DNA from: Arcobacter sp. LA11 | Lineage (GTDB): Bacteria > Campylobacterota > Campylobacteria > Campylobacterales > Arcobacteraceae | NCBI RefSeq assembly: GCF_001895145.1 | Contig: NZ_BDIR01000012.1 | Span: forward strand, 1-64,000 | Reading direction: 5' to 3' | DNA length: 64,000 bases | Shown here: positions 47,993-58,665 of the stretch, in pieces | Numbering within the stretch: the first letter of the stretch is position 1 | How the letters are laid out: each line of letters starts with the position of its first letter | Made by a program: the position numbers and the translations under genes | The notes under the pieces: model-generated | Seen by the model: the letters and a program-made list of their open reading frames with translations, nothing else | Told to the model about the DNA's origin: nothing | Database searches by the model: none

Positions 47993-48673
47993 TTAATTAT
48001 AAACTTGTTTTAGCCTATCGAGTAAAGAGTTTAATATCACTTCATCAATCTTAATATCAATTCTACTTGAAATAATAATTTGTAACTCTATAGTCTTATT
48101 AATATACTCAACTTGTTCATCTATAGAAAATCTTTTCCAGTTATTATTTGACTTTTGTCCATTATGGTACTTTGTTAAAAGTTGAAAGTTATCTGGATGA
48201 TGAACCCCTCTATTCTTTTTGTTTTTTAAAGCTTTTGCATGATCAACTTCAAAATGAATATTGTAAAACTCTTTAAACTCATCTCTTATTTTATAAAATT
48301 CATTAAGTCTATACTTATCAGAAGAATTCATGTTTTTTTCAGCTTCTTTTTTTGTAAGATTTATGTTTACATCTTCTAACTCTTCTTCTAACTCTTCTTT
48401 TGATTCTTCTTCTGTTATATATTTTACACGGCGAGGACGTTCACTATTATCTATCTTTATAAAACTATCAAAGCCACCAGTTGAAAGCCTAGAACTAATA
48501 CGAGCTGCTATTTCTCTTAAGCCCGTTGTATCATTCTTTTGATTCTGAGCTTCTTGGTTAGCTTTTTCTAAAACATCAGGATAAAGTTCTCCAACCTTTT
48601 CCGCCCATTGTGAAACAGTTATATAATCATCAAAACTTTTTAATGCTTCTAAATATTTTTCATGTATTTTCAT
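47993..48673 (-). CDS. HNH nuclease-like protein with N-terminal winged-helix-like domain
   Basis: The 226-residue protein (MKIHEKYLEALKS start) has an N-terminal ~90-residue domain resembling a DNA-binding winged helix (ITVSQWAEKVGELYPDVLEK, TTGLREIAARISSRL), an acidic linker, and an HNH site: VDHAKAL (DH 144-145), HHPDNFQLL (158-166) and YHNGQKSN (169-176). Its ATG (48673) is preceded by GGGAG four bases upstream, so I prefer it over an upstream TTG (48772). The same frame also runs on beyond 48673. The upstream 130 bases hold a fragment of another HNH gene. Likely a DNA-targeting nuclease of the defence island. Confidence 0.68.
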   Translation of the reverse strand: MKIHEKYLEALKSFDDYITVSQWAEKVGELYPDVLEKANQEAQNQKNDTTGLREIAARISSRLSTGGFDSFIKIDNSERPRRVKYITEEESKEELEEELEDVNINLTKKEAEKNMNSSDKYRLNEFYKIRDEFKEFYNIHFEVDHAKALKNKKNRGVHHPDNFQLLTKYHNGQKSNNNWKRFSIDEQVEYINKTIELQIIISSRIDIKIDEVILNSLLDRLKQVYN

Positions 48674-48677
48674 AAAA

Positions 48678-48682
48678 CTCCC
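48678..48682 (-). promoter_or_regulatory. ribosome binding site deciding the HNH start
   Basis: GGGAG on the minus strand, 4 bases before ATG 48673. It supports initiation inside the longer TTG-started frame. Confidence 0.5.
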
Positions 48683-48726
48683 TAAATCCAACTTTTCATA
48701 TTCTTCTTCAATATTATTTTCATCGA

Positions 48727-48804
48727 TTACGTTTTTTTGCATATTGCACAGCGACCTGCAAATTGTCCCCAAATTATATTTTTTGTTTTTGGTGTTACTG
48801 CCAT
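48727..48804 (-). pseudogene. truncated HNH N-terminal fragment
   Basis: A 25-codon frame starts at ATG 48804, 1 base after the RhuM-family stop, and reads MAVTPKTKN... FAGRCAICKKT before TAA. WGQFAGRCAICKK is typical of the first zinc-knuckle part of HNH nucleases, but the remainder is missing. The stop follows an A7 run on the minus strand; with eight A the frame would join the downstream HNH protein (270 residues in all). It is either a deletion remnant or a phase-variable or sequencing frameshift. Confidence 0.6.
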
Positions 48805-48805
48805 T

Positions 48806-49840
48806 TCATTTTCCCTCAATTTGATTAAGCAGTAAATCAAAATCAGATAAATATTTTTTATCTTGTATCACTCTATACTTTTCATATTCTGATTCTGCTT
48901 TTAGTTTAGCTTGAAGAGCAGATACTTTACCATTATCTAAAAGTATAGGATACATTGATAAATCCAAGAACTTATCTAAAAACTCTATCCAGTCTTTCAT
49001 ATTCATTACGATTCCACGATTCGCTCTATTATCTGCAAGATCAAGATATGCTGATACTATTTTTTCTAACTGTTTTATATGTTCACTATCAAGATAATTT
49101 TTTGCTGTACTTACATCTGATTTAAGTATCTTTCCATCTGGCGCATTTTTCCAAGTTTTAAGCCCCATATATATTTTAGTAGCATCAGCTTCACTATATA
49201 TTATCTCAGCAGCTGTTTTCCCACATATTGCCCAATGAAGTTTATTCTGAACAGTAGAATAAAACTGTTTTGTTAGATCATCATTTTTATCATAATCAGC
49301 ACTTAAAGCATATATATCTGTAATCTTTTGATAAAACCGTCTCTCACTAAGTCTTATTTCTCTTATACGCTCTAGTTGCTCTTCAAAGTAATCTATACCA
49401 AAATGTTGAAGATGTTTTAATCTTTCATCATCCATAGTAAAACCTTTGATGATATACTCATGTAAAATCTCACTTGCCCATTTTCTAAACTCTATAGCTC
49501 TATGAGAGTTTACTTTATAGCCTACGGCTGTGATTACTTTTAGATTGTAGTATTGAACTTCTTTAGTTTGAGTTTTTCCCTCTATTGCACCATGTTCTGT
49601 GGTATGTCGGAATTTCCGACATACCACTTTTTCATCTAATTCTTCATCATCAAATATCTTTTTAATATGCTCAGTGATAGTACTTCTACCCTTATCAAAA
49701 AGCTCTGCAATTTGCTTTTGAGTCAACCACAAAGTTTCATCATGGAAAAACACATTGATATTTACTTTTGCATCATCTATTTTAAATATCACAAAGTTTG
49801 AAAACTTTTGAGGAGTATTTATTGAGATTTGTTTATCCAT
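48806..49840 (-). CDS. RhuM-family protein
   Basis: The 344-residue protein is typical of the RhuM family (first described from Salmonella SPI-3). An N-terminal helix-turn-helix-like segment (WLTQKQIAELFDKGRSTITE, 33-52) precedes a central Bro/KilA-like region (YYNLKVITAVGYKVNSHRAI), then a helical C-terminus with LHWAICGKTAAEIIYSEAD. The function is unproven; the family is often near restriction and toxin genes. It lies 73 bases after the HNH nuclease gene of the hsd operon and 1 base before the HNH fragment. Confidence 0.85.
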   Translation of the reverse strand: MDKQISINTPQKFSNFVIFKIDDAKVNINVFFHDETLWLTQKQIAELFDKGRSTITEHIKKIFDDEELDEKVVCRKFRHTTEHGAIEGKTQTKEVQYYNLKVITAVGYKVNSHRAIEFRKWASEILHEYIIKGFTMDDERLKHLQHFGIDYFEEQLERIREIRLSERRFYQKITDIYALSADYDKNDDLTKQFYSTVQNKLHWAICGKTAAEIIYSEADATKIYMGLKTWKNAPDGKILKSDVSTAKNYLDSEHIKQLEKIVSAYLDLADNRANRGIVMNMKDWIEFLDKFLDLSMYPILLDNGKVSALQAKLKAESEYEKYRVIQDKKYLSDFDLLLNQIEGK

Positions 49841-49913: not shown

Positions 49914-50990
49914 TCAAATTATATCTACCTCTTGTAAATCCCTCAATATCCCTTTTCTCTTACACTCTTTAATAAAAGGAACTTCCCATAAGTAATCTTT
50001 ACTCAAAGGATTGCTTTTTTGATTCTCTTCTAAAAGTTCAATATATTCATCTATAGTATAAGGATTATCTTTTCTATTGATAGCAGTATTTACCTCATCC
50101 AACCAAGCTTTAGCTCCTAGTTTACTTGATACTTTTTGCTTATATCTATCTTTTATTCTAAATACCCTATCCCAGCTTTCAACTTCCTCTTTATATTTTA
50201 AAGTTTTTAGCTCTACATTGACATCTTTTTGAGATAAGGTTTCAATCTTTTTTGTTTGTAGGCTTACATCTACCCCTATATCAATATCATTTCCCCCATA
50301 AGGATAAAATGCCTTTACTCTTTTACCATTTTTTGCTATTGGATTTTTCTTAAGTTTATAAGAGGAATTACATCTATTACACATTGGAGCAAGATTTTTT
50401 AAATTGATCGAAGTAAAAGGGAAATCTCCTTTTGATAAAAAATGATCATAAGCCTCTTTTGGTAAGTTTCCCCCAAACTCTAAAAGATGCAACCCACAAA
50501 AAGGGCAAAGCTCTGTATTTTTTTTAATAAACTTTTTATAATGCCTATCCATACTACTATTAAGTATATCTTTTACATCTTTTAAATGGATCACATCGGT
50601 ATAGATACTTTCAAAGAACTTATGTATCTCTTTTGATAAATCCTCATCTATTTTTTTTAGATCATTAAAATCCATATAGATACGACTCTTATCTTCAAAA
50701 AGTTCTTGAATACTATTATTCATATCAAAAAACTGTGCAATTGTATTTTTTTGTATCTCACTAAGTTGTGCAAATTTTTCATAGATAGATTTTATAGGAG
50801 CATAAAGATGATCTTTTTTAACCTGTGGATTATTATATAACCGTATAATCATATCTTTAAGCTTATCATCTGTGATCAAATCCACATCAAAATCACCACT
50901 AGCATTACACCAAAAATCTTTTACAAGATATTTCATACACTCGTGCATAAGCTTTACATTATCATCTACATACTCATATTGAAATAACAT
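49914..50990 (-). CDS. HNH nuclease, PtuB-like
   Basis: The 358-residue protein has a helical N-terminal ~150 residues and an HNH site with zinc knuckles: CPFC at 162-165, YDHFLSKGDF (DH 182-183), NLAPMCNRCN (CxxC 204-207), then NPI. It starts 2 bases after the ATPase gene and so is coupled to it. A RecF/ABC-like ATPase beside an HNH nuclease is the arrangement of Septu (PtuA/PtuB), and ATPase-HNH pairs are also known beside type I restriction genes. The pair probably forms a nuclease complex; the trigger is unknown. Confidence 0.8.
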   Translation of the reverse strand: MLFQYEYVDDNVKLMHECMKYLVKDFWCNASGDFDVDLITDDKLKDMIIRLYNNPQVKKDHLYAPIKSIYEKFAQLSEIQKNTIAQFFDMNNSIQELFEDKSRIYMDFNDLKKIDEDLSKEIHKFFESIYTDVIHLKDVKDILNSSMDRHYKKFIKKNTELCPFCGLHLLEFGGNLPKEAYDHFLSKGDFPFTSINLKNLAPMCNRCNSSYKLKKNPIAKNGKRVKAFYPYGGNDIDIGVDVSLQTKKIETLSQKDVNVELKTLKYKEEVESWDRVFRIKDRYKQKVSSKLGAKAWLDEVNTAINRKDNPYTIDEYIELLEENQKSNPLSKDYLWEVPFIKECKRKGILRDLQEVDII

Positions 50991-50992
50991 AA

Positions 50993-52723
50993 CTACTTTT
51001 TAAAAAACTCCATTGTTTCTATAGACCTACCTATAATACTCTCTAACTCTTCAAGCACCTCTTTTTTATTTTTTGATTTTCGTAGTTTTTTCTTATACTC
51101 TTTTAATACCTCTTGTGCAAACTTACCTATTGTATTTGTCTCATCAAAAATATTCATTGTGATAAGATTTACAGAAGTTCCAAGGGTATTAAACTCAGGT
51201 CGCTTACAATCTACACTTCCATCTTCCAAATCCTTAGAAAAAATAAGCACCTTTTCTCTTCTAGTATCAGACACAATAAAAGGTGAATGGGAAGTTATCA
51301 AAAATTCTGCTTTTGCATAAGCTTTTTCATCTTCTTTTGAAGAAAAACATTTTCTTAATACACTCATATACTCCGCTCTCCAAGATGGGTTAAAGTGGGT
51401 CTCTGGTTCATCTAGTAAAAAGAGTGATTGGGTATCCCTATAGATTAGTGCTAGTCCTATGGAGTGTAAAAACTGATACTCTCCATCTGAGAGGGATTTA
51501 CTATATACTGGCTCATCAAGCCCTTTTTTCTTTAGCATAAAATTTTTAAAGGTGAAAAATCTTTTATTCCATGAGGCTTGGGGTAAGTAGCCTTTAGCAA
51601 AGAGGCTTTTTGATTCATAGAGTTTCTTTTTTGTCTCCACATCCACATGATAATAGTTTAAGTTTATAAGGGTTTGAAAGGTTTGAAAAAGGGTAAGTCT
51701 TCCCTCTTTTCCTATTCCAAACTGTAAAGTAAAAGCCTCTTTTAAATTATCATCTAAATAATAATCCAGAGAAAGATCCTTTGTTTTTTCATTTCTATAG
51801 TCCATAGTAGCACAGCTTTTTAGCTTTTCTATTTGCTCTGCAATTTGATCTTTTAAAAACCTTGATCTCTCTTTTAGCTGTGTTCCTTTTTTCCCTTTCT
51901 CTTTTACCTCAACTACCACTCTTGTATCTATATCATCTTTTATCACTATTCTAAAAGACTCCACAGATTTCACCCCTATAGTCTCTTTAAATACTTTATT
52001 CACCTTTTCATCCCCATAGATAAAATTAGTGATAAATATGGCTTGGGAAAAAACATCATCAAGGTAGATCATCCTAGATTCAGGGTTTTTAAAACGTATA
52101 TCTTTTGCTAAATAATCATCTAAATACTCATCATGTTGAATAAGTCTCATTTTATAAAAAGGTAAGCTTAGTATCTCATTTTGCCCTGATGAATACCCTA
52201 AAATATAAGAGGGTAAATACTCTTTTACATCATCCGCTAAAAGATATAGGGATTGTCCAGTATTATCTTCTATAGAAACCATAATATCTTTTTTTGGTTT
52301 TCGCTCAATTGTAACTAATATTTCATCGTTATTTTGATTGGTTATATAATATTGAAGTTTATACTTTTCTGGTTTTATTTTATACTTAGAGTTTTTAGTA
52401 AACTCTTGAAATATCTTTAGCTCTTTATATTCTCTATTATCTACATATTCATGCTCTTTATTTGAGATATATTTTTGCTTTTTATTATCCACATAAGGAG
52501 GATCAATCTCTTTTGGTAAAAAGTTAAGATGTTGTATCTCTACTTGATAAAATATAGCAGATAAAAGCTCCAAAATATTGGACTTACCACTTCCATTTCT
52601 CCCCACCACACAATATGGCTCTATAGCAGAGTTATCCCTTGGTGGCTCTTTTATAAAATCAAGACTAAATCCACTTTTTAAACTTCCAAAATCATCATGG
52701 AGTTCTATACGCTTAAGTCGCAT
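50993..52723 (-). CDS. RecF/ABC-type ATPase associated with the restriction system, PtuA-like
   Basis: The 576-residue ATPase has Walker A GRNGSGKS at 41-48, an ABC-like signature LSDGEYQ at 411-417, Walker B LFLLDEPETHF at 434-444 and the switch-region TSHSP at 477-481. A helical insertion of ~300 residues lies between the halves. This is the SMC/OLD-like layout of PtuA and of restriction-associated AAA proteins. ATG 52723 lies 7 bases after GGAG and inside the end of hsdS (19-base overlap), indicating translational coupling. Confidence 0.85.
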   Translation of the reverse strand: MRLKRIELHDDFGSLKSGFSLDFIKEPPRDNSAIEPYCVVGRNGSGKSNILELLSAIFYQVEIQHLNFLPKEIDPPYVDNKKQKYISNKEHEYVDNREYKELKIFQEFTKNSKYKIKPEKYKLQYYITNQNNDEILVTIERKPKKDIMVSIEDNTGQSLYLLADDVKEYLPSYILGYSSGQNEILSLPFYKMRLIQHDEYLDDYLAKDIRFKNPESRMIYLDDVFSQAIFITNFIYGDEKVNKVFKETIGVKSVESFRIVIKDDIDTRVVVEVKEKGKKGTQLKERSRFLKDQIAEQIEKLKSCATMDYRNEKTKDLSLDYYLDDNLKEAFTLQFGIGKEGRLTLFQTFQTLINLNYYHVDVETKKKLYESKSLFAKGYLPQASWNKRFFTFKNFMLKKKGLDEPVYSKSLSDGEYQFLHSIGLALIYRDTQSLFLLDEPETHFNPSWRAEYMSVLRKCFSSKEDEKAYAKAEFLITSHSPFIVSDTRREKVLIFSKDLEDGSVDCKRPEFNTLGTSVNLITMNIFDETNTIGKFAQEVLKEYKKKLRKSKNKKEVLEELESIIGRSIETMEFFKK

Positions 52724-54249
52724 TTTTTCACTCCTAGTAGTATCTGTTTTGTTTCCCTATCAAAGATTTGAAAAAGTTTTTCCTCTTTTAAAAGCTGAAA
52801 AATAGTATCTTTAAAAGTAAAAGGTTTTTCATTTTTATTTTGATCTTCATCATAGGGAATATCAAAGCCATATTTATCTGTAAATAGTTTATAAAGTTCT
52901 GTAAAAGTACTCTCTTTTTCTAGTAGCTCTTTAAGGATTTTTTGAAAGTATTTATCATCTTCTATAGTAAGAGTATGTATATACTCCTCTTTTCCTATCT
53001 CTGTAAAAGCATGTATAGAGCTTTCTTGAAGTATCTTTTCTGCTTTAGAACTACTAGGTTTATTTTTTATATATAGTGTTGAAACTTCTGATTTATCATA
53101 AGATGGACTTGTTTCTAAGAGTTCTGGTTTTACATCTATAAGCTCTTCTAAGCTATTTAAATCAAGCTCCCCTTTAAAAGCTTTTTGGGATACTGAAGCA
53201 AAAAGTTGATTTAGTTCATCAAGGCTTTTTTGATAGGTTTTTTTTGTGGTTTCTATTTTTTTTACTATATTTGAGAATTTATCTTGTAGGTCTTTATCAA
53301 CTACATATATTTTTTCTTTATGTACAATATTTCTATTTAAAGTGGGAACTCCAGCACCTCTTACAAATCTATTTAATTTAAAGAATTTAACTAAATAAGT
53401 TAAATAAATAAGATTATTTCCAAATGTATTAATACTAAATAAAGTTGTATTCAAAGGCCAAAAAGGTTTTTCTGAATAATATACTTCTCCAATTGTACCA
53501 GACCGCCCTGTTACAATACCATATTCACATCTATATTCATTATGATTAGTTAGTATTCCATTTGACCCATAAACATTAAAGTCACCATTTTCCTCTCTAT
53601 CTTTTTTAGGTAAATCATAGCCTCTTTGAAGCTTCACTACATTTTCAAATAAATCTATGGGTCTATTTTGACTATTAGTAATAGGATCACCAAATATATC
53701 CAAAAATGTACTTTTTACTAATTTATCAAGAAGCTCTATAGTTTTTTCCCTTTTTAAGATCAGGATTTCTATTTGGGATAATAGATTTGCTATTTTTTTC
53801 TGCTCTTCTATTGTATTTGGTAAAGGTATTTTAATTTTTGCTAGTGTTTTTTGATTAAGGGTTTTTCCTTTTACCGCTATTTTTGCATCATTTAATAATG
53901 GTACAAATTTTAAAGCATAATACAAATAATCTTTAGATAATTCCACATCTTCTTTTATATTTAAAGCGGCAATTGCTTCATTTGTATATAGATCACAATC
54001 TGTAAAAGCAAGTTTTCCTATACTTAGTTTAAAACTCATTAAAAGAGTACCTTTTTTTACAAGCCTACAGTTTTTTTCTTCCACTGCTTTTTGAGTTATT
54101 TGCTCTTTTGTTTTACATACTGTTTTTTCTTTTAAATCACTTATAGTAACCCAAGGATAACCTTTTCCCCAATATGTTTCTGTTTTTCTATCAGGTGTTT
54201 TACCTATTTGGATATTACATAGTTTTGAAAGCTCTACTAATTTATACAT
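52705..54249 (-). CDS. hsdS: type I restriction-modification specificity subunit HsdS with extra C-terminal domain
   Basis: The 514-residue subunit recognises the DNA target. Two target recognition domains (about 1-145 and 195-320) are each followed by a conserved helix (IEEQKKIANLLSQIEILILK, 147-166, and LQDKFSNIVKKIETTKKTYQ, 321-340). HsdS usually ends after the second helix region, near 400; here ~140 extra residues follow, including LYKLFTDKYGFDIPYDEDQN and a helix-rich tail. The extension abuts the ATPase gene start and may dock the ATPase; that is inference. Confidence 0.9.
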   Translation of the reverse strand: MYKLVELSKLCNIQIGKTPDRKTETYWGKGYPWVTISDLKEKTVCKTKEQITQKAVEEKNCRLVKKGTLLMSFKLSIGKLAFTDCDLYTNEAIAALNIKEDVELSKDYLYYALKFVPLLNDAKIAVKGKTLNQKTLAKIKIPLPNTIEEQKKIANLLSQIEILILKREKTIELLDKLVKSTFLDIFGDPITNSQNRPIDLFENVVKLQRGYDLPKKDREENGDFNVYGSNGILTNHNEYRCEYGIVTGRSGTIGEVYYSEKPFWPLNTTLFSINTFGNNLIYLTYLVKFFKLNRFVRGAGVPTLNRNIVHKEKIYVVDKDLQDKFSNIVKKIETTKKTYQKSLDELNQLFASVSQKAFKGELDLNSLEELIDVKPELLETSPSYDKSEVSTLYIKNKPSSSKAEKILQESSIHAFTEIGKEEYIHTLTIEDDKYFQKILKELLEKESTFTELYKLFTDKYGFDIPYDEDQNKNEKPFTFKDTIFQLLKEEKLFQIFDRETKQILLGVKKCDLSV

Positions 54250-54250
54250 T

Positions 54251-55882
54251 TTAGAATAAACTCTTTAAATCTTTAAGCTCACTTTGTATCTCATCTTCTA
54301 AACTTATAAGCTCATCTAAAATATCCTTTGGCGCATCATAAACTTCTTCTTCATAAGTAATTTCTTGGTAGCTTCCAAAGCTAAGGTCATAGCCGTTTTC
54401 TTTGATCTCTTTTTTAGGTACTAAGAAGTATTTTACTTTTCTATCATTTTGCTCTTTTAGACTGGCTCTTTCTTTATACTTTTTTATAATATCTTGTAAA
54501 TCACCATAGTCACGAGTCCCATCCTCTTTATATCTAGGTTTTCTTTTATCATCTAAATCGTATCCATCACTTTGCATATCATAGAAAAACACCTCATCAG
54601 TATCTCCACCTTTAGTAAAGATCAGTATAGCTGTAGCTACTCCTGCGTAGGGTTTAAATACCCCACTTGGCATAGTGATCACTGCTTTTAGTTCAGACTC
54701 TTCTATCATAAGTGCTCTAGCCTCTTTAAAAGCTTTGGCACTTCCAAAAAGCACCCCTTGAGGGATGATGATACCAGCTGTTCCACCTACCTTTAAAAGG
54801 GTATGAATCCTATCGATAAAAAGAAGCTCTGTTTTTGTAGTACCTAGTCTTAGTTTATCGTCCATCTCCCCTTTATTTAGGTTTCCTGTAAAGGGTGGAT
54901 TTGCTAAAACCACATCATAAGAGTTTAGCTCACCTTCATATTTTTGAAAACTTTTACTTAGGGTATCGGTGTATTCTATATTTGGGTTGGTGATACCGTG
55001 CATCATAAGGTTCATAAGACCAAGCCTTACCATGGTCACATCTATATCGTAGCCTTTTAGGCTAGTGTCTAGGGTCTTTTTTACCTCTTCTTTTAGTATA
55101 GCACTTGTACTACTTCTAGTAAAACCATTTTCATCTACTTTGTGGTGTTTACCCTCTGTATCCAGTGAAGTGGTGATATACTGATAGGCTCCTAGTAAAA
55201 ACCCTGCACTACCACAAGCTGGATCGGTAATCTTATTGCCATATTTTGGCTCTACAAGATCAACTAGTAGATTGATAATCTGCCGTGGGGTTCTAAACTG
55301 TCCATTTTTCCCTGCACTTGCGATCTCACTTAGAAGCATCTCATATACATCACCTTGGATATCTTGGTGGGCTTGTCCATTCTCCAAAGCATCTTTTTCT
55401 ATCTCTTTAAAAATATCTTCGATGATATACATAGCCTCATGTAAAAGAGATGCACTAGGTATCACAAATACGGCGTTTTTCATATATTTTGTAAAGTGGG
55501 AGTTTTCTCCGCCTATCTCTTTGATAAAAGGAAATACATATTGGGTGATATGCTCTAGTCTCTCTTCTGAGCTTAGATGGGTAAAGATACTCCATTTGAA
55601 TTCTGTTTTAGGAAAATCTTCAGGTTCTTCTTTTTCTTTACCTGTTTTTTTATCTATCTTTTTTACAAGTTTTGTATAAGTTCCCTCAAAAATAGAATCG
55701 TACTTTTCTCCAGTAAATTCAGCATTTTCTATATTTTTTATATCAAGATCATCAAGCTTTTTTATAAAAAGAAGATAAGTTATCTGCTCTATAGCTGTAA
55801 GTGGATTTGAGATACCTCCACTCCAAAATTTATTCCATAGTTTATCTATAAGGCTCTCTAGGTTTTTATTTAAATGCAACAT
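54251..55882 (-). CDS. hsdM: type I restriction-modification methyltransferase HsdM
   Basis: The 543-residue N6-adenine methyltransferase has the SAM-binding motif DPACGSAGF at 220-228 and the catalytic NPPF at 328-331, with an N-terminal helical HsdM domain that contacts HsdS. It starts at the last base of hsdR and ends 1 base before hsdS. Length is normal. It protects host DNA and is required for restriction. Confidence 0.96.
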   Translation of the reverse strand: MLHLNKNLESLIDKLWNKFWSGGISNPLTAIEQITYLLFIKKLDDLDIKNIENAEFTGEKYDSIFEGTYTKLVKKIDKKTGKEKEEPEDFPKTEFKWSIFTHLSSEERLEHITQYVFPFIKEIGGENSHFTKYMKNAVFVIPSASLLHEAMYIIEDIFKEIEKDALENGQAHQDIQGDVYEMLLSEIASAGKNGQFRTPRQIINLLVDLVEPKYGNKITDPACGSAGFLLGAYQYITTSLDTEGKHHKVDENGFTRSSTSAILKEEVKKTLDTSLKGYDIDVTMVRLGLMNLMMHGITNPNIEYTDTLSKSFQKYEGELNSYDVVLANPPFTGNLNKGEMDDKLRLGTTKTELLFIDRIHTLLKVGGTAGIIIPQGVLFGSAKAFKEARALMIEESELKAVITMPSGVFKPYAGVATAILIFTKGGDTDEVFFYDMQSDGYDLDDKRKPRYKEDGTRDYGDLQDIIKKYKERASLKEQNDRKVKYFLVPKKEIKENGYDLSFGSYQEITYEEEVYDAPKDILDELISLEDEIQSELKDLKSLF

Positions 55883-58665
55883 TATGCTACTAACTCCTGT
55901 GTAATATTTAGTATTTCATCTATCTCTGTTTTAGTAAATACTCCTCGTATACCAGAGGGATGTATCACTGTAAAAGGTGCAGATATTAGATCTTTTTTGC
56001 TTAAGCTCTCATTATCTATGATAAACCCTTTTAATAAATCCAAAAATTTTAACTGTGTAGTGGTAAGTGTAGGATGCTCTTTGATAAACTTATCAAAAGA
56101 TTCACTTACCGTATCTGGGAAGTTTTTAAGCTCTTCAAGTCCTAAGATATGCTTGATAAACTTTAAAAAAGGTGCTTTTTTATTCATATACACCCTACGC
56201 AAAAGATCAAGGGTGATAAAAGGGTCTTGCTCGTGTAGAGTGTGAGCTAACTCTTCTATCTCTTTTTCACTTAGACTTTTGCCCTCTTTTAGCTTTTGTA
56301 GGATTTTATTTTGATTTAAAAGCTCTTTGATCTTATCTTCTACCATTTGTTTGTATTTTGAGATACTCACAGACTCCCTATCTGCACCAAACTCCACATA
56401 CTCTTTTTTCTTGATATAATCTTTAAAATCAAAGATAGGAGTATCATCATCCTCAAGCTTTGATTCTGCCCTATATTTCATAAGCGGAGCAAGGGCTTTT
56501 ACTAAAATATCAAGATCACTATCTTTTAGATGGTTCCAGTATTTTACTTCTTTGGCTTTTGTGATAAGATTCTCTTCTTTGGCGACTATATTTACACTTA
56601 AAAGTAAGTTTTCTATTAAAGCTATAAGGGTATCTCTTTTTTTTACCCTATTTTCTTCGTCATTTTCAAGTAGATATATAGAGTACTCCAACACATCTTT
56701 TTCAAATCGCATCGCCTTATAATCCACCCCTACAATAGATTTGGCTAAGGGTTTTATGTAAGTATCTAAAAACTCTAAATTCTCCTTAGATAGAGTTCTA
56801 TAAAAGATAGAATCTAATTTATCAAGATGATTTTTCCCATCTTGTATGGTTGTAGAGTTTTTAGGGAAAAGCTCTATAAACTCTTGAAGCTTTTGTATCT
56901 CTTTTTTAGCTATCTCAATATCAAGCTTTAAAGCACTTTCTATCTTTTGAAGTCTAAGCTCAAAAAACCTTATGGGAAGTGGAGTATTTGGGATAAGACT
57001 TTTTCCTTGCGGTTCAAGTTTAAAATACTTAAAATTATCCCAACAATCCATAATAAGAAATTTCTCTTTTTCTTTACACCACGGTTTTAAGTTTTGCGGA
57101 TCAAGCAGTCTTGTACCCCGCCCTATCATCTGCCAAAACTTAGTATAAGAGTAAATAGGCTTTGCAAATACTAGGTTTGATACCTCTTTTATATCCACCC
57201 CCGTATCAAGCATACCCACACTTATGGCAATACGCGGCATATCTTGGGTTTTAAACTGATCTAAAAGCCCACCTTTTCCGTAAGCCCTACTATCATCAGA
57301 TACTATTACTTTGGCTAGTTCCCCATTATATTCAGGATATAAAGAGTTAAAAAGCTCTTCCACTCTTCTAGCATGGGCTTTTGTCATACAAAAGAAGATA
57401 CTCTTTGTGGGTATCACCCCATCACTATCTTTGATAGACTCTTCCATAAACTCTTTTACGATGATTCGATTTGTATCTTTATTTATCACATCTCTTTCTA
57501 GCTGAGTTCCTTCATAATTTATCTCTTCAATCTCTTTACCTTCTAAAATCATATTCTTTTGATCTTCTAAAGAAATAGTTCTTTTATTTAGTCCATCATC
57601 TTGAAACTTTGTCTGAATCTTTAGCACCTCAAAATCACAAAGATAAGGTGGAATATGATCCAACGCCTCCTCATAAGAATAAGCAAATGAAGGCAACCCA
57701 TCCTCACAAGAAAAAAGCTCAAAAGTGTTATGATCTATCACATTGGTTGGAGTTGCAGTAAGCCCAAGCTTTAAAGCATCAAAATACTCTAAAATCTCCC
57801 CATAAGTATTATAAATAGACCTATGAGATTCATCTATCACGATCAGATCAAAAAAGTGTGAAGATAAAGTTTGCTCCTCATCTCGTATAATATTTAACAT
57901 AGTTGGGTAAGTGGATACATAAATACGCCTATCTTTAGAAATACTACTCTCCCCAAACTTTGGCCAAATAGGCTCACTTGGAATATACTCTTTAAAAGCC
58001 TCTATAGCCTGCTCCCTTAAAGCCACCCTATCCACTAAAAAAAGAGTATTTTTAATATACCCAGCCCTTAAAAGAGCATCCACTAAAGCAATAGTAGTAC
58101 GAGTCTTCCCCGTACCAGTAGCCATCACCAGTAAAAAATCTCTTCTTTTTTTATCTATCAGTTCCATCACTGATCTTATAGCACTTACTTGATAATCCCT
58201 CCCTGCTATATGGGTATCAATAAACTCATGGGAAAGGGACTTTTTATAGTTTTGTATATGACGAAGACGCTCTAAATCCTCCCTAGTAGGATAAGCATAG
58301 ATTTTTCTAGGAGGGTAGTTTTCTATATCCCAAAAATATATGTCGTTGCCATTTGTATAAAAGCAAAAAGGAAGATCGATATTATGTTCAGCTTTTAGAT
58401 TGTAACAATACTGCTTAGCCTGTTCCTGCCCAACCCTGGGATCTCGTGAGCTTTTTTTAGCCTCAACTACAGCCAAAGGCTTCCCCTCACGACCTAGAAG
58501 AACATAATCACAAAACTGCTTTTTACCATAGCTAGGCTTTACATCAGATACAAAAGAAGTGTTTGAAAACTCTTGCCTTACTTGGGCATAGTTAGTTACA
58601 TCCCAGCCAGATAGGAGTAGTTTAGTATCAATAAGTTCTTGTCGTGTCTGTGTTTCGTTTTGCAA
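55882..58665 (-). CDS. hsdR: type I restriction endonuclease subunit HsdR
   Basis: The 927-residue motor and nuclease subunit has an N-terminal PD-(D/E)xK nuclease site (CDYVLL with D53; VVEAKK with E68 and K70), an SF2 helicase core with MATGTGKTRT at 181-190, IDESHRSIYN, GMLDTGVDI and QMIGRGTRL. It resembles the EcoEI HsdR type. The start is TTG at 58665: an in-frame stop lies 6 bases upstream, and the next in-frame Met is far downstream. Its first-gene position suggests the operon promoter lies within 58666-58801, where I see no convincing -10. Confidence 0.95.
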   Translation of the reverse strand: MQNETQTRQELIDTKLLLSGWDVTNYAQVRQEFSNTSFVSDVKPSYGKKQFCDYVLLGREGKPLAVVEAKKSSRDPRVGQEQAKQYCYNLKAEHNIDLPFCFYTNGNDIYFWDIENYPPRKIYAYPTREDLERLRHIQNYKKSLSHEFIDTHIAGRDYQVSAIRSVMELIDKKRRDFLLVMATGTGKTRTTIALVDALLRAGYIKNTLFLVDRVALREQAIEAFKEYIPSEPIWPKFGESSISKDRRIYVSTYPTMLNIIRDEEQTLSSHFFDLIVIDESHRSIYNTYGEILEYFDALKLGLTATPTNVIDHNTFELFSCEDGLPSFAYSYEEALDHIPPYLCDFEVLKIQTKFQDDGLNKRTISLEDQKNMILEGKEIEEINYEGTQLERDVINKDTNRIIVKEFMEESIKDSDGVIPTKSIFFCMTKAHARRVEELFNSLYPEYNGELAKVIVSDDSRAYGKGGLLDQFKTQDMPRIAISVGMLDTGVDIKEVSNLVFAKPIYSYTKFWQMIGRGTRLLDPQNLKPWCKEKEKFLIMDCWDNFKYFKLEPQGKSLIPNTPLPIRFFELRLQKIESALKLDIEIAKKEIQKLQEFIELFPKNSTTIQDGKNHLDKLDSIFYRTLSKENLEFLDTYIKPLAKSIVGVDYKAMRFEKDVLEYSIYLLENDEENRVKKRDTLIALIENLLLSVNIVAKEENLITKAKEVKYWNHLKDSDLDILVKALAPLMKYRAESKLEDDDTPIFDFKDYIKKKEYVEFGADRESVSISKYKQMVEDKIKELLNQNKILQKLKEGKSLSEKEIEELAHTLHEQDPFITLDLLRRVYMNKKAPFLKFIKHILGLEELKNFPDTVSESFDKFIKEHPTLTTTQLKFLDLLKGFIIDNESLSKKDLISAPFTVIHPSGIRGVFTKTEIDEILNITQELVA

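What the first reader, a model, noticed from the sequence alone, without database searches (positions are those of the whole stretch)
52705..53170. HsdS with a ~140-residue C-terminal extension abutting the ATPase gene
After the second conserved helix (near residue 360) HsdS normally ends within ~40 residues. Here the chain continues to 514 with a helix-rich segment, and its gene overlaps the ATPase start by 19 bases. The extension could recruit the ATPase-HNH pair to methylation sites.
Basis: partly seen in the sequence, partly recalled or inferred. Interest (0 to 1): 0.5.

Follow-up and report, generated by a model that had tools for sequence, protein, structure and literature searches.

The report
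Restriction specificity subunit with docking domain
The DNA-recognition subunit of this restriction system carries an extra acidic winged-helix domain that appears together with a neighbouring ATPase and nuclease gene pair, which suggests that it fastens a second, possibly suicidal, anti-phage weapon onto the restriction enzyme.

Summary
HsdS (514 aa) has two target-recognition domains and two spacer helices, the second ending at residue 358. It continues with a poorly predicted linker (359-427) and a confidently predicted winged helix (about 428-510). Its gene overlaps the ATPase start by 19 nt. The ATPase is NCBIfam TIGR04435 (552 bits, cut-off 300); the next gene is a PtuB-like HNH nuclease.

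All 81 readable HsdS genes beside this ATPase (83 loci) carry 81-341 extra residues. An extension profile run over whole genomes found 5 HsdS genes not used to build it; all 5 adjoin ATPase and HNH. Its two other new matches are not HsdS. 30 control HsdS loci gave none. In E. coli the extension DNA occurs in 85 of 5,426 genomes, the ATPase allele also in 85.

The winged helix is acidic (75 of 81 net negative) while the recognition domains are basic, and its divergence tracks the ATPase (partial r 0.31), not the HNH. I conclude it is probably a docking domain for a Septu-like ATPase-nuclease pair, as PrrC sits on EcoprrI. Contact, and what the nuclease cuts, are inferred. The operon association was already known; the domain was not found in print in the searches made.

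The parts
55882..58665 (-). hsdR, type I restriction subunit (EcoAI/EcoEI-like), 927 aa
   Evidence: Pfam HSDR_N, ResIII, EcoEI_R_C
54251..55882 (-). hsdM, N6-adenine methyltransferase, 543 aa
   Evidence: Pfam N6_Mtase 9.7e-57, HsdM_N
52705..54249 (-). hsdS, specificity subunit, 514 aa
   Evidence: Pfam Methylase_S, 2 stretches; fold match 1yf2 Z 28.6 over 1-366
53176..53295 (-). hsdS second conserved spacer helix (residues 319-358), where ordinary HsdS proteins end
   Evidence: AlphaFold2 model
52969..53175 (-). hsdS linker (residues 359-427), mostly low confidence, probably flexible
   Evidence: pLDDT; length varies among relatives
52720..52968 (-). hsdS C-terminal winged helix (about residues 428-510), proposed ATPase-docking domain
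   Evidence: net negative in 75 of 81 HsdS genes
52705..52723 (-). 19-nt overlap of hsdS and ATPase genes
50993..52723 (-). ABC-type ATPase, TIGR04435 restrict_AAA_1 (PtuA-like), 576 aa
   Evidence: TIGR04435 552 bits, cut-off 300; PADLOC PtuA1 3.2e-59
49914..50990 (-). HNH nuclease (PtuB-like), 358 aa, CxxC..DH..N..CxxCN motif present
   Evidence: PADLOC PDC-M62B 5e-14, PtuB 6e-6; motif

Best explanation
The extension is a flexible linker plus an acidic winged helix that probably docks the neighbouring PtuA-like ATPase, and through it the HNH nuclease, onto the HsdM2S (or HsdR2M2S) complex. Shown: the domain (as a confident model), its association with the ATPase-HNH pair, its acidity across the family, and co-divergence with the ATPase. 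Inferred: physical contact; that the restriction enzyme then acts as sensor and holding platform; and that the pair is released or activated when the enzyme meets unmodified DNA or is neutralised by a phage anti-restriction factor, so that the HNH cuts tRNA or DNA. This would be the same logic as PrrC on EcoprrI, reached with other parts. Docking as such (this reading plus the first rival) I put at about 0.8.
For: Extension in 81 of 81 readable HsdS genes beside the ATPase; HNH in 83 of 83 loci. Converse: 5 of 5 HsdS genes with the extension that were neither in the profile nor fetched through the ATPase adjoin ATPase and HNH (G490, G709, G714, G801, G829); the only matches outside HsdS were SecA (G258) and a 126-aa protein (G009) at E 1.5e-4 and 8.2e-4. 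E. coli: extension DNA in 85 of 5,426 genomes, one place each; ATPase DNA at >=99% in 85. 27 more distant ATPases of the family, 15 of them with an HNH neighbour, have no HsdS within about 1.5 kb, so the pair also lives without HsdS. Charge: winged helix net negative in 75 of 81 (median -6) against TRD1 net positive in 75 of 79 and TRD2 in 80 of 81. Co-divergence over 58 complete loci, holding HsdR and HsdM constant: winged helix-ATPase r 0.31 (p 0.001); CR1 -0.02, CR2 -0.09; winged helix-HNH -0.03 once the ATPase is held constant too; the spacer helices instead track HsdM (0.66, 0.51), as expected of true contacts. ATPase and HNH motifs are intact in nearly all (Walker A 79 of 81, DEPE 80 of 81, HNH core 81 of 81). 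PrrC precedent: passages of PMC2610378 and PMC3874165.
Against: No contact was measured or modelled. Winged helix, ATPase and HNH are one block of DNA, so recombination inside hsdS could raise co-divergence through linkage alone; the poor correlation of the nearby CR2 and of HNH argues against this but does not exclude it. The partial correlation is modest (0.31; 0.28 on 46 less redundant loci). The winged helix also tracks HsdM and HsdR a little (0.15 and 0.20). The window's own winged helix is only weakly acidic (15 basic, 19 acidic residues over 425-514). Winged helices usually bind nucleic acid. hsdR is missing from 4 of 67 loci with at least 7 kb upstream, so a guard on the whole HsdR-containing enzyme cannot be the only arrangement.
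Confidence: 0.55

Rival explanations
1. The docked ATPase-HNH pair is a direct second restriction nuclease: HsdM2S finds an unmodified site, the winged helix brings in the ATPase, and the HNH cuts DNA there, with or without HsdR.
For: hsdR is absent from 4 of 67 loci with enough flank (L049, L056, L073, L183) while HsdS and HNH are kept in 67 of 67; the genome of L056 (G885), and that of L146 (G829, whose fetched flank shows no hsdR), have no match to this HsdR. The Septu pair of E. coli ATCC 25922 was reported to act on nicked DNA (passage of PMC11555353).
Against: 63 of 67 loci keep HsdR. Other PtuAB pairs deplete or cut tRNA-Tyr (passages). E. coli JS316 (L183) may have lost hsdR by recent recombination; it was not searched for elsewhere in that genome. 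Two of the five hsdR-less genomes searched, G401 (L049) and G801, do have partial HsdR-like matches elsewhere.
Confidence: 0.25
2. The winged helix is a DNA-binding add-on of HsdS: it widens the grip on DNA or represses the operon's own promoter, and has no partner in the ATPase.
For: Winged-helix fold with PadR, MarR and SarX-type regulators among the structural neighbours. A winged helix after an HsdS-like spacer in type 1 BrxX was read as DNA-binding (passages of PMC12839542).
Against: Net negative in 75 of 81; found in HsdS only beside this ATPase in the genomes searched.
Confidence: 0.12
3. Linkage without function: an old HsdS lineage with a longer tail happens to sit in an operon with the ATPase pair.
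For: All genes are in one operon block; ATPase distances correlate with those of HsdR and HsdM at 0.83.
Against: The end domain is kept in all 81 although its sequence is about as diverged as the hypervariable recognition domains (mean distance 0.77 against 0.80-0.81), and the linker varies widely in length while the end domain stays.
Confidence: 0.08

Closest known systems
NCBIfam TIGR04435 restrict_AAA_1, 'restriction system-associated AAA family ATPase'
   Same: The neighbour is a clear member (552 bits, cut-off 300); the name shows that the association with restriction genes was already noticed.
   Different: The name says nothing of the HsdS extension. The search for the accession in the paper library gave no paper.
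PrrC-EcoprrI
   Same: An ABC-type ATPase with a nuclease, embedded in and held by a type I restriction enzyme, released on anti-restriction (passages).
   Different: PrrC is one chain with an anticodon nuclease; here ATPase and HNH are two genes and HsdS carries the extra domain.
Septu PtuA/PtuB and retron-Eco7 effectors
   Same: ABC ATPase gene followed by HNH gene; sequence relatives.
   Different: Below the NCBIfam PtuA and PtuB cut-offs (49.7 of 500 bits; 15 of 150); the sensor here would be a restriction enzyme, not a retron.
Type 1 BREX BrxX methyltransferase
   Same: Target-recognition domain, HsdS-like spacer, then a winged helix (passage of PMC12839542).
   Different: One chain with the methyltransferase; the winged helix was read there as DNA-binding.
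PARIS AriA/AriB
   Same: OLD-type ABC ATPase that senses the anti-restriction protein Ocr and unleashes a tRNA-cutting nuclease (passage of PMC12839542).
   Different: TOPRIM nuclease; no HsdS docking domain is mentioned in the passages read.

Membership tests
Type I HsdS | Two Methylase_S target-recognition domains with conserved spacer helices | tested here: met
   Pfam two stretches; solved HsdS folds matched over 1-366
TIGR04435 restrict_AAA_1 | Curated score cut-off 300 bits | tested here: met
   552.4 bits
Septu (NCBIfam PtuA, PtuB) | Curated cut-offs 500 and 150 bits | tested here: not met
   49.7 and 15 bits; PADLOC PtuA1 and PtuB models do match
PrrC-EcoprrI | ATPase and anticodon nuclease in one chain | tested here: not met
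   Separate ATPase and HNH genes
PrrC-EcoprrI | Nuclease silenced by the restriction enzyme and released by anti-restriction | not testable with these tools
   needs experiment
MADS | MAD2 methyltransferase curated cut-off 720 bits | tested here: not met
   115 bits
Winged-helix fold | H1-H2-H3 and two-stranded wing | tested here: met
   AlphaFold2; best Z 9.8 to an Nse1/3/4 chain (7ymd_C) and 9.5 to a putative transcriptional regulator (3elk_B). A predicted fold, not a function

The most novel reading that the evidence does not exclude
A widespread class of type I enzymes uses an HsdS winged helix to hold a PtuAB-like ATPase-nuclease pair in check on the restriction complex, a convergent counterpart of PrrC-EcoprrI; in hsdR-less versions the docked pair has become the only effector, so a methyltransferase serves as the self/non-self sensor for a suicide nuclease.
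Probability: 0.35. Interest if true: 0.75.

Novelty: new variant of a known kind. Interest (0 to 1): 0.55.

Why it matters
Type I enzymes are treated as three-subunit machines with PrrC as the classic latent passenger. A dedicated docking domain in HsdS that marks one broad subclass would make 'restriction enzyme as guard platform' a general principle, give a sequence signature for finding such systems, and offer a tractable E. coli version (96 of 5,426 complete genomes carry the ATPase).

Tried and rejected
Pfam Tox-MPTase4 over residues 340-460 (8.2e-5, 23 bits, below its 25-bit cut-off) is taken as spurious: 1 of 74 extensions matches it. The extension profile has no convincing sequence match in the PDB (best E 0.07), and Foldseek gave no match at E 0.001 or better; the winged-helix call rests on the model's topology and the second-look Z scores, whose level (under 10) the tool warns is middling. 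The absence of HsdS beside 27 sub-threshold ATPases was judged on flanks of about 1.5 kb only. The two extension matches not in HsdS are chance-level. Structures of the ATPase and of the HsdS-ATPase complex were not predicted (two jobs only, both used on HsdS). The ATPase windows with the highest co-divergence (residues about 241-340 and 1-60) come from an exploratory scan of 14 windows without correction. No match to the ATPase was found in the phage collection (E 1e-20) and 2 of 72,556 plasmid records matched; of those two, Priestia has an S gene annotated just before the ATPase and Kovacikia shows only an unannotated gap and a hypothetical gene there. Krishnan et al. 2020 on ABC-ATPase systems was not held; it is known only from its citation in PMC12839542, so the operon-level association may be described there.

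Rows dropped: of 83 ATPase loci, L036 (contig end) and L085 (broken hsdS) have no readable HsdS, leaving 81; 7 of these 81 were left out of profile A3 and 13 out of A4; 58 loci with all genes long enough entered the co-divergence test.

Full report
What is there. On the minus strand the window reads hsdR (55882-58665), hsdM (54251-55882), hsdS (52705-54249), ATPase (50993-52723), HNH (49914-50990), then rhuM and a second small HNH-like gene. Pfam, PADLOC and NCBIfam name the first three as an ordinary type I system, the ATPase as TIGR04435 'restriction system-associated AAA family ATPase', and the HNH as a distant PtuB/PDC-M62B relative. hsdS and ATPase overlap by 19 nt, with an AGGAG-like sequence before the ATPase start (read by eye). 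The genome is G000, 3.1 Mb, and the search of it with this HsdS returned this one place.

The extension. Structure prediction with 68 aligned relatives gives a canonical HsdS up to residue 358, a poorly predicted linker and a winged helix at about 428-510; the extension predicted alone gives the same winged helix. Second-look structural alignment places it with an Nse1/3/4 chain (7ymd_C, Z 9.8, 80 residues, 2.7 A) and with PadR-type and other regulators (3elk_B, Z 9.5, 76 residues, 2.4 A). These are fold neighbours, not evidence of function; that winged helices also serve as protein-docking modules on ATPases (kleisins on SMC heads) is recalled, not tested.

Does it go with the ATPase? A scan of species genomes with the ATPase alignment found 317 relatives, of which the best 80 were kept; with two Campylobacterota loci and the window this makes 83. 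HNH was found in 83 of 83 and HsdS in 82. In 74 of 79 loci with a called HsdS just upstream, the gap to the ATPase lies between -26 and +15 nt (counted from the list). Of 83 loci 81 gave a readable HsdS end; all 81 continue 81-341 residues (median 136) beyond the usual end. In the broken-hsdS locus L085 the extension sequence still lies directly before the ATPase.

Does it occur without the ATPase? The extension profile A3 was run over 394 Campylobacterota genomes (5 with a match), 229 genomes of the class of G397 (2), 247 of the phylum of G405 (8), 210 of the class of G404 (2; the handles shown are largely those of G397's set) and 200 of the class of G406 (1). Apart from the window, search centres and loci already in the profile, 5 HsdS matches are new and all 5 adjoin ATPase and HNH (G490's HsdS confirmed by Pfam). 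The two remaining matches are SecA and a short protein. Any Methylase_S domain is found in 175 of the 247 Bacteroidota genomes; HsdS frames from 30 of these loci show no extension match even at E 1 and no such ATPase in the short stretch held. Most of the 30 end shortly after the second helix by eye; L152 and L180 are longer, different chains, and a few are cut. In E. coli the extension DNA occurs in 85 of 5,426 genomes and the ATPase at 99% or more in 85, plus 11 at about 70% whose extension is not seen at this sensitivity; the one of these 11 that was opened, strain 504239, has hsdM, hsdS (517 aa by its annotated length), ATPase and HNH, with a helicase gene in the hsdR position.

Docking or DNA binding? 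The winged helix is net negative in 75 of 81 (median -6) whereas both recognition domains are net positive in nearly all. Distances over 58 loci show it tracks the ATPase beyond what HsdR and HsdM explain (partial r 0.31, permutation p 0.001; bootstrap difference from CR2 0.13-0.64), and not HNH once the ATPase is held constant. The spacer helices behave as a positive control, tracking HsdM. This is what a docking domain should do, but linkage remains possible.

Mechanism. Motifs of ATPase and HNH are intact across the family, so the pair is probably active. Relatives PtuAB arrest growth and deplete tRNA-Tyr in retron-Eco7, cut tRNA-Tyr in one Septu, and were reported to act on nicked DNA in another (passages). 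PrrC gives the precedent for a nuclease held latent on a type I enzyme (passages). I therefore favour a latent effector held by HsdS. The hsdR-less loci (4 of 67) show the rest can be kept without HsdR and leave room for a direct-restriction role.

Novelty. The operon association is known at least as an NCBIfam family name, and coupling of ABC ATPases to nucleases in restriction-like systems is cited in print. For the HsdS winged helix I found no paper with the searches (listings seen; passages read of the papers named); most subscription papers are not in that library. Verdict: new variant of a known kind.

Noticed in passing
window 49599-49627 (inside rhuM, 48806-49840 -): The rhuM coding sequence holds a perfect 29-nt palindrome (14-bp arms). 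14 of 19 rhuM frames examined (several near-identical) have perfect arms of 10-14 bp at about codons 58-82, with different arm sequences but mostly a shared GGAAATTCC-like core, so the arms seem to co-vary; the longest arm in 40 codon shuffles of each gene was 7-12. Could be an operator or target site inside the gene.
   Followed up: partly
L049, L056, L073, L183; also L145, L146: Loci that keep HsdS, ATPase and HNH without hsdR nearby: SIR2-domain gene upstream in L049, YhcG-type PD-(D/E)XK gene between hsdM and hsdS in L056, no hsdM either in L073.
   Followed up: partly
L183 (E. coli JS316): The E. coli version lacks hsdR and lies beside an ArdC-family gene and conjugation genes, probably an integrative conjugative element; 85 nearly identical ATPase copies among 5,426 genomes.
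   Followed up: no
L034:6969-8006, window 48806-49840: rhuM lies between hsdS and the ATPase in L034 but after the HNH in the window.
   Followed up: no
window 47993-48772 (-): A second small HNH-like gene after rhuM, weak PtuB match (6.5e-4), found in only 2 loci.
   Followed up: no
L043:7812-10001, L069:7860-10001: HsdS of 730 and 714 aa with a long insert between the second spacer helix and the C-terminal domain, consistent with a tether of free length.
   Followed up: no
L141: Rearranged version: hsdR-hsdS-ATPase-HNH followed by hsdM-like genes of 501 and 324 aa downstream.
   Followed up: no
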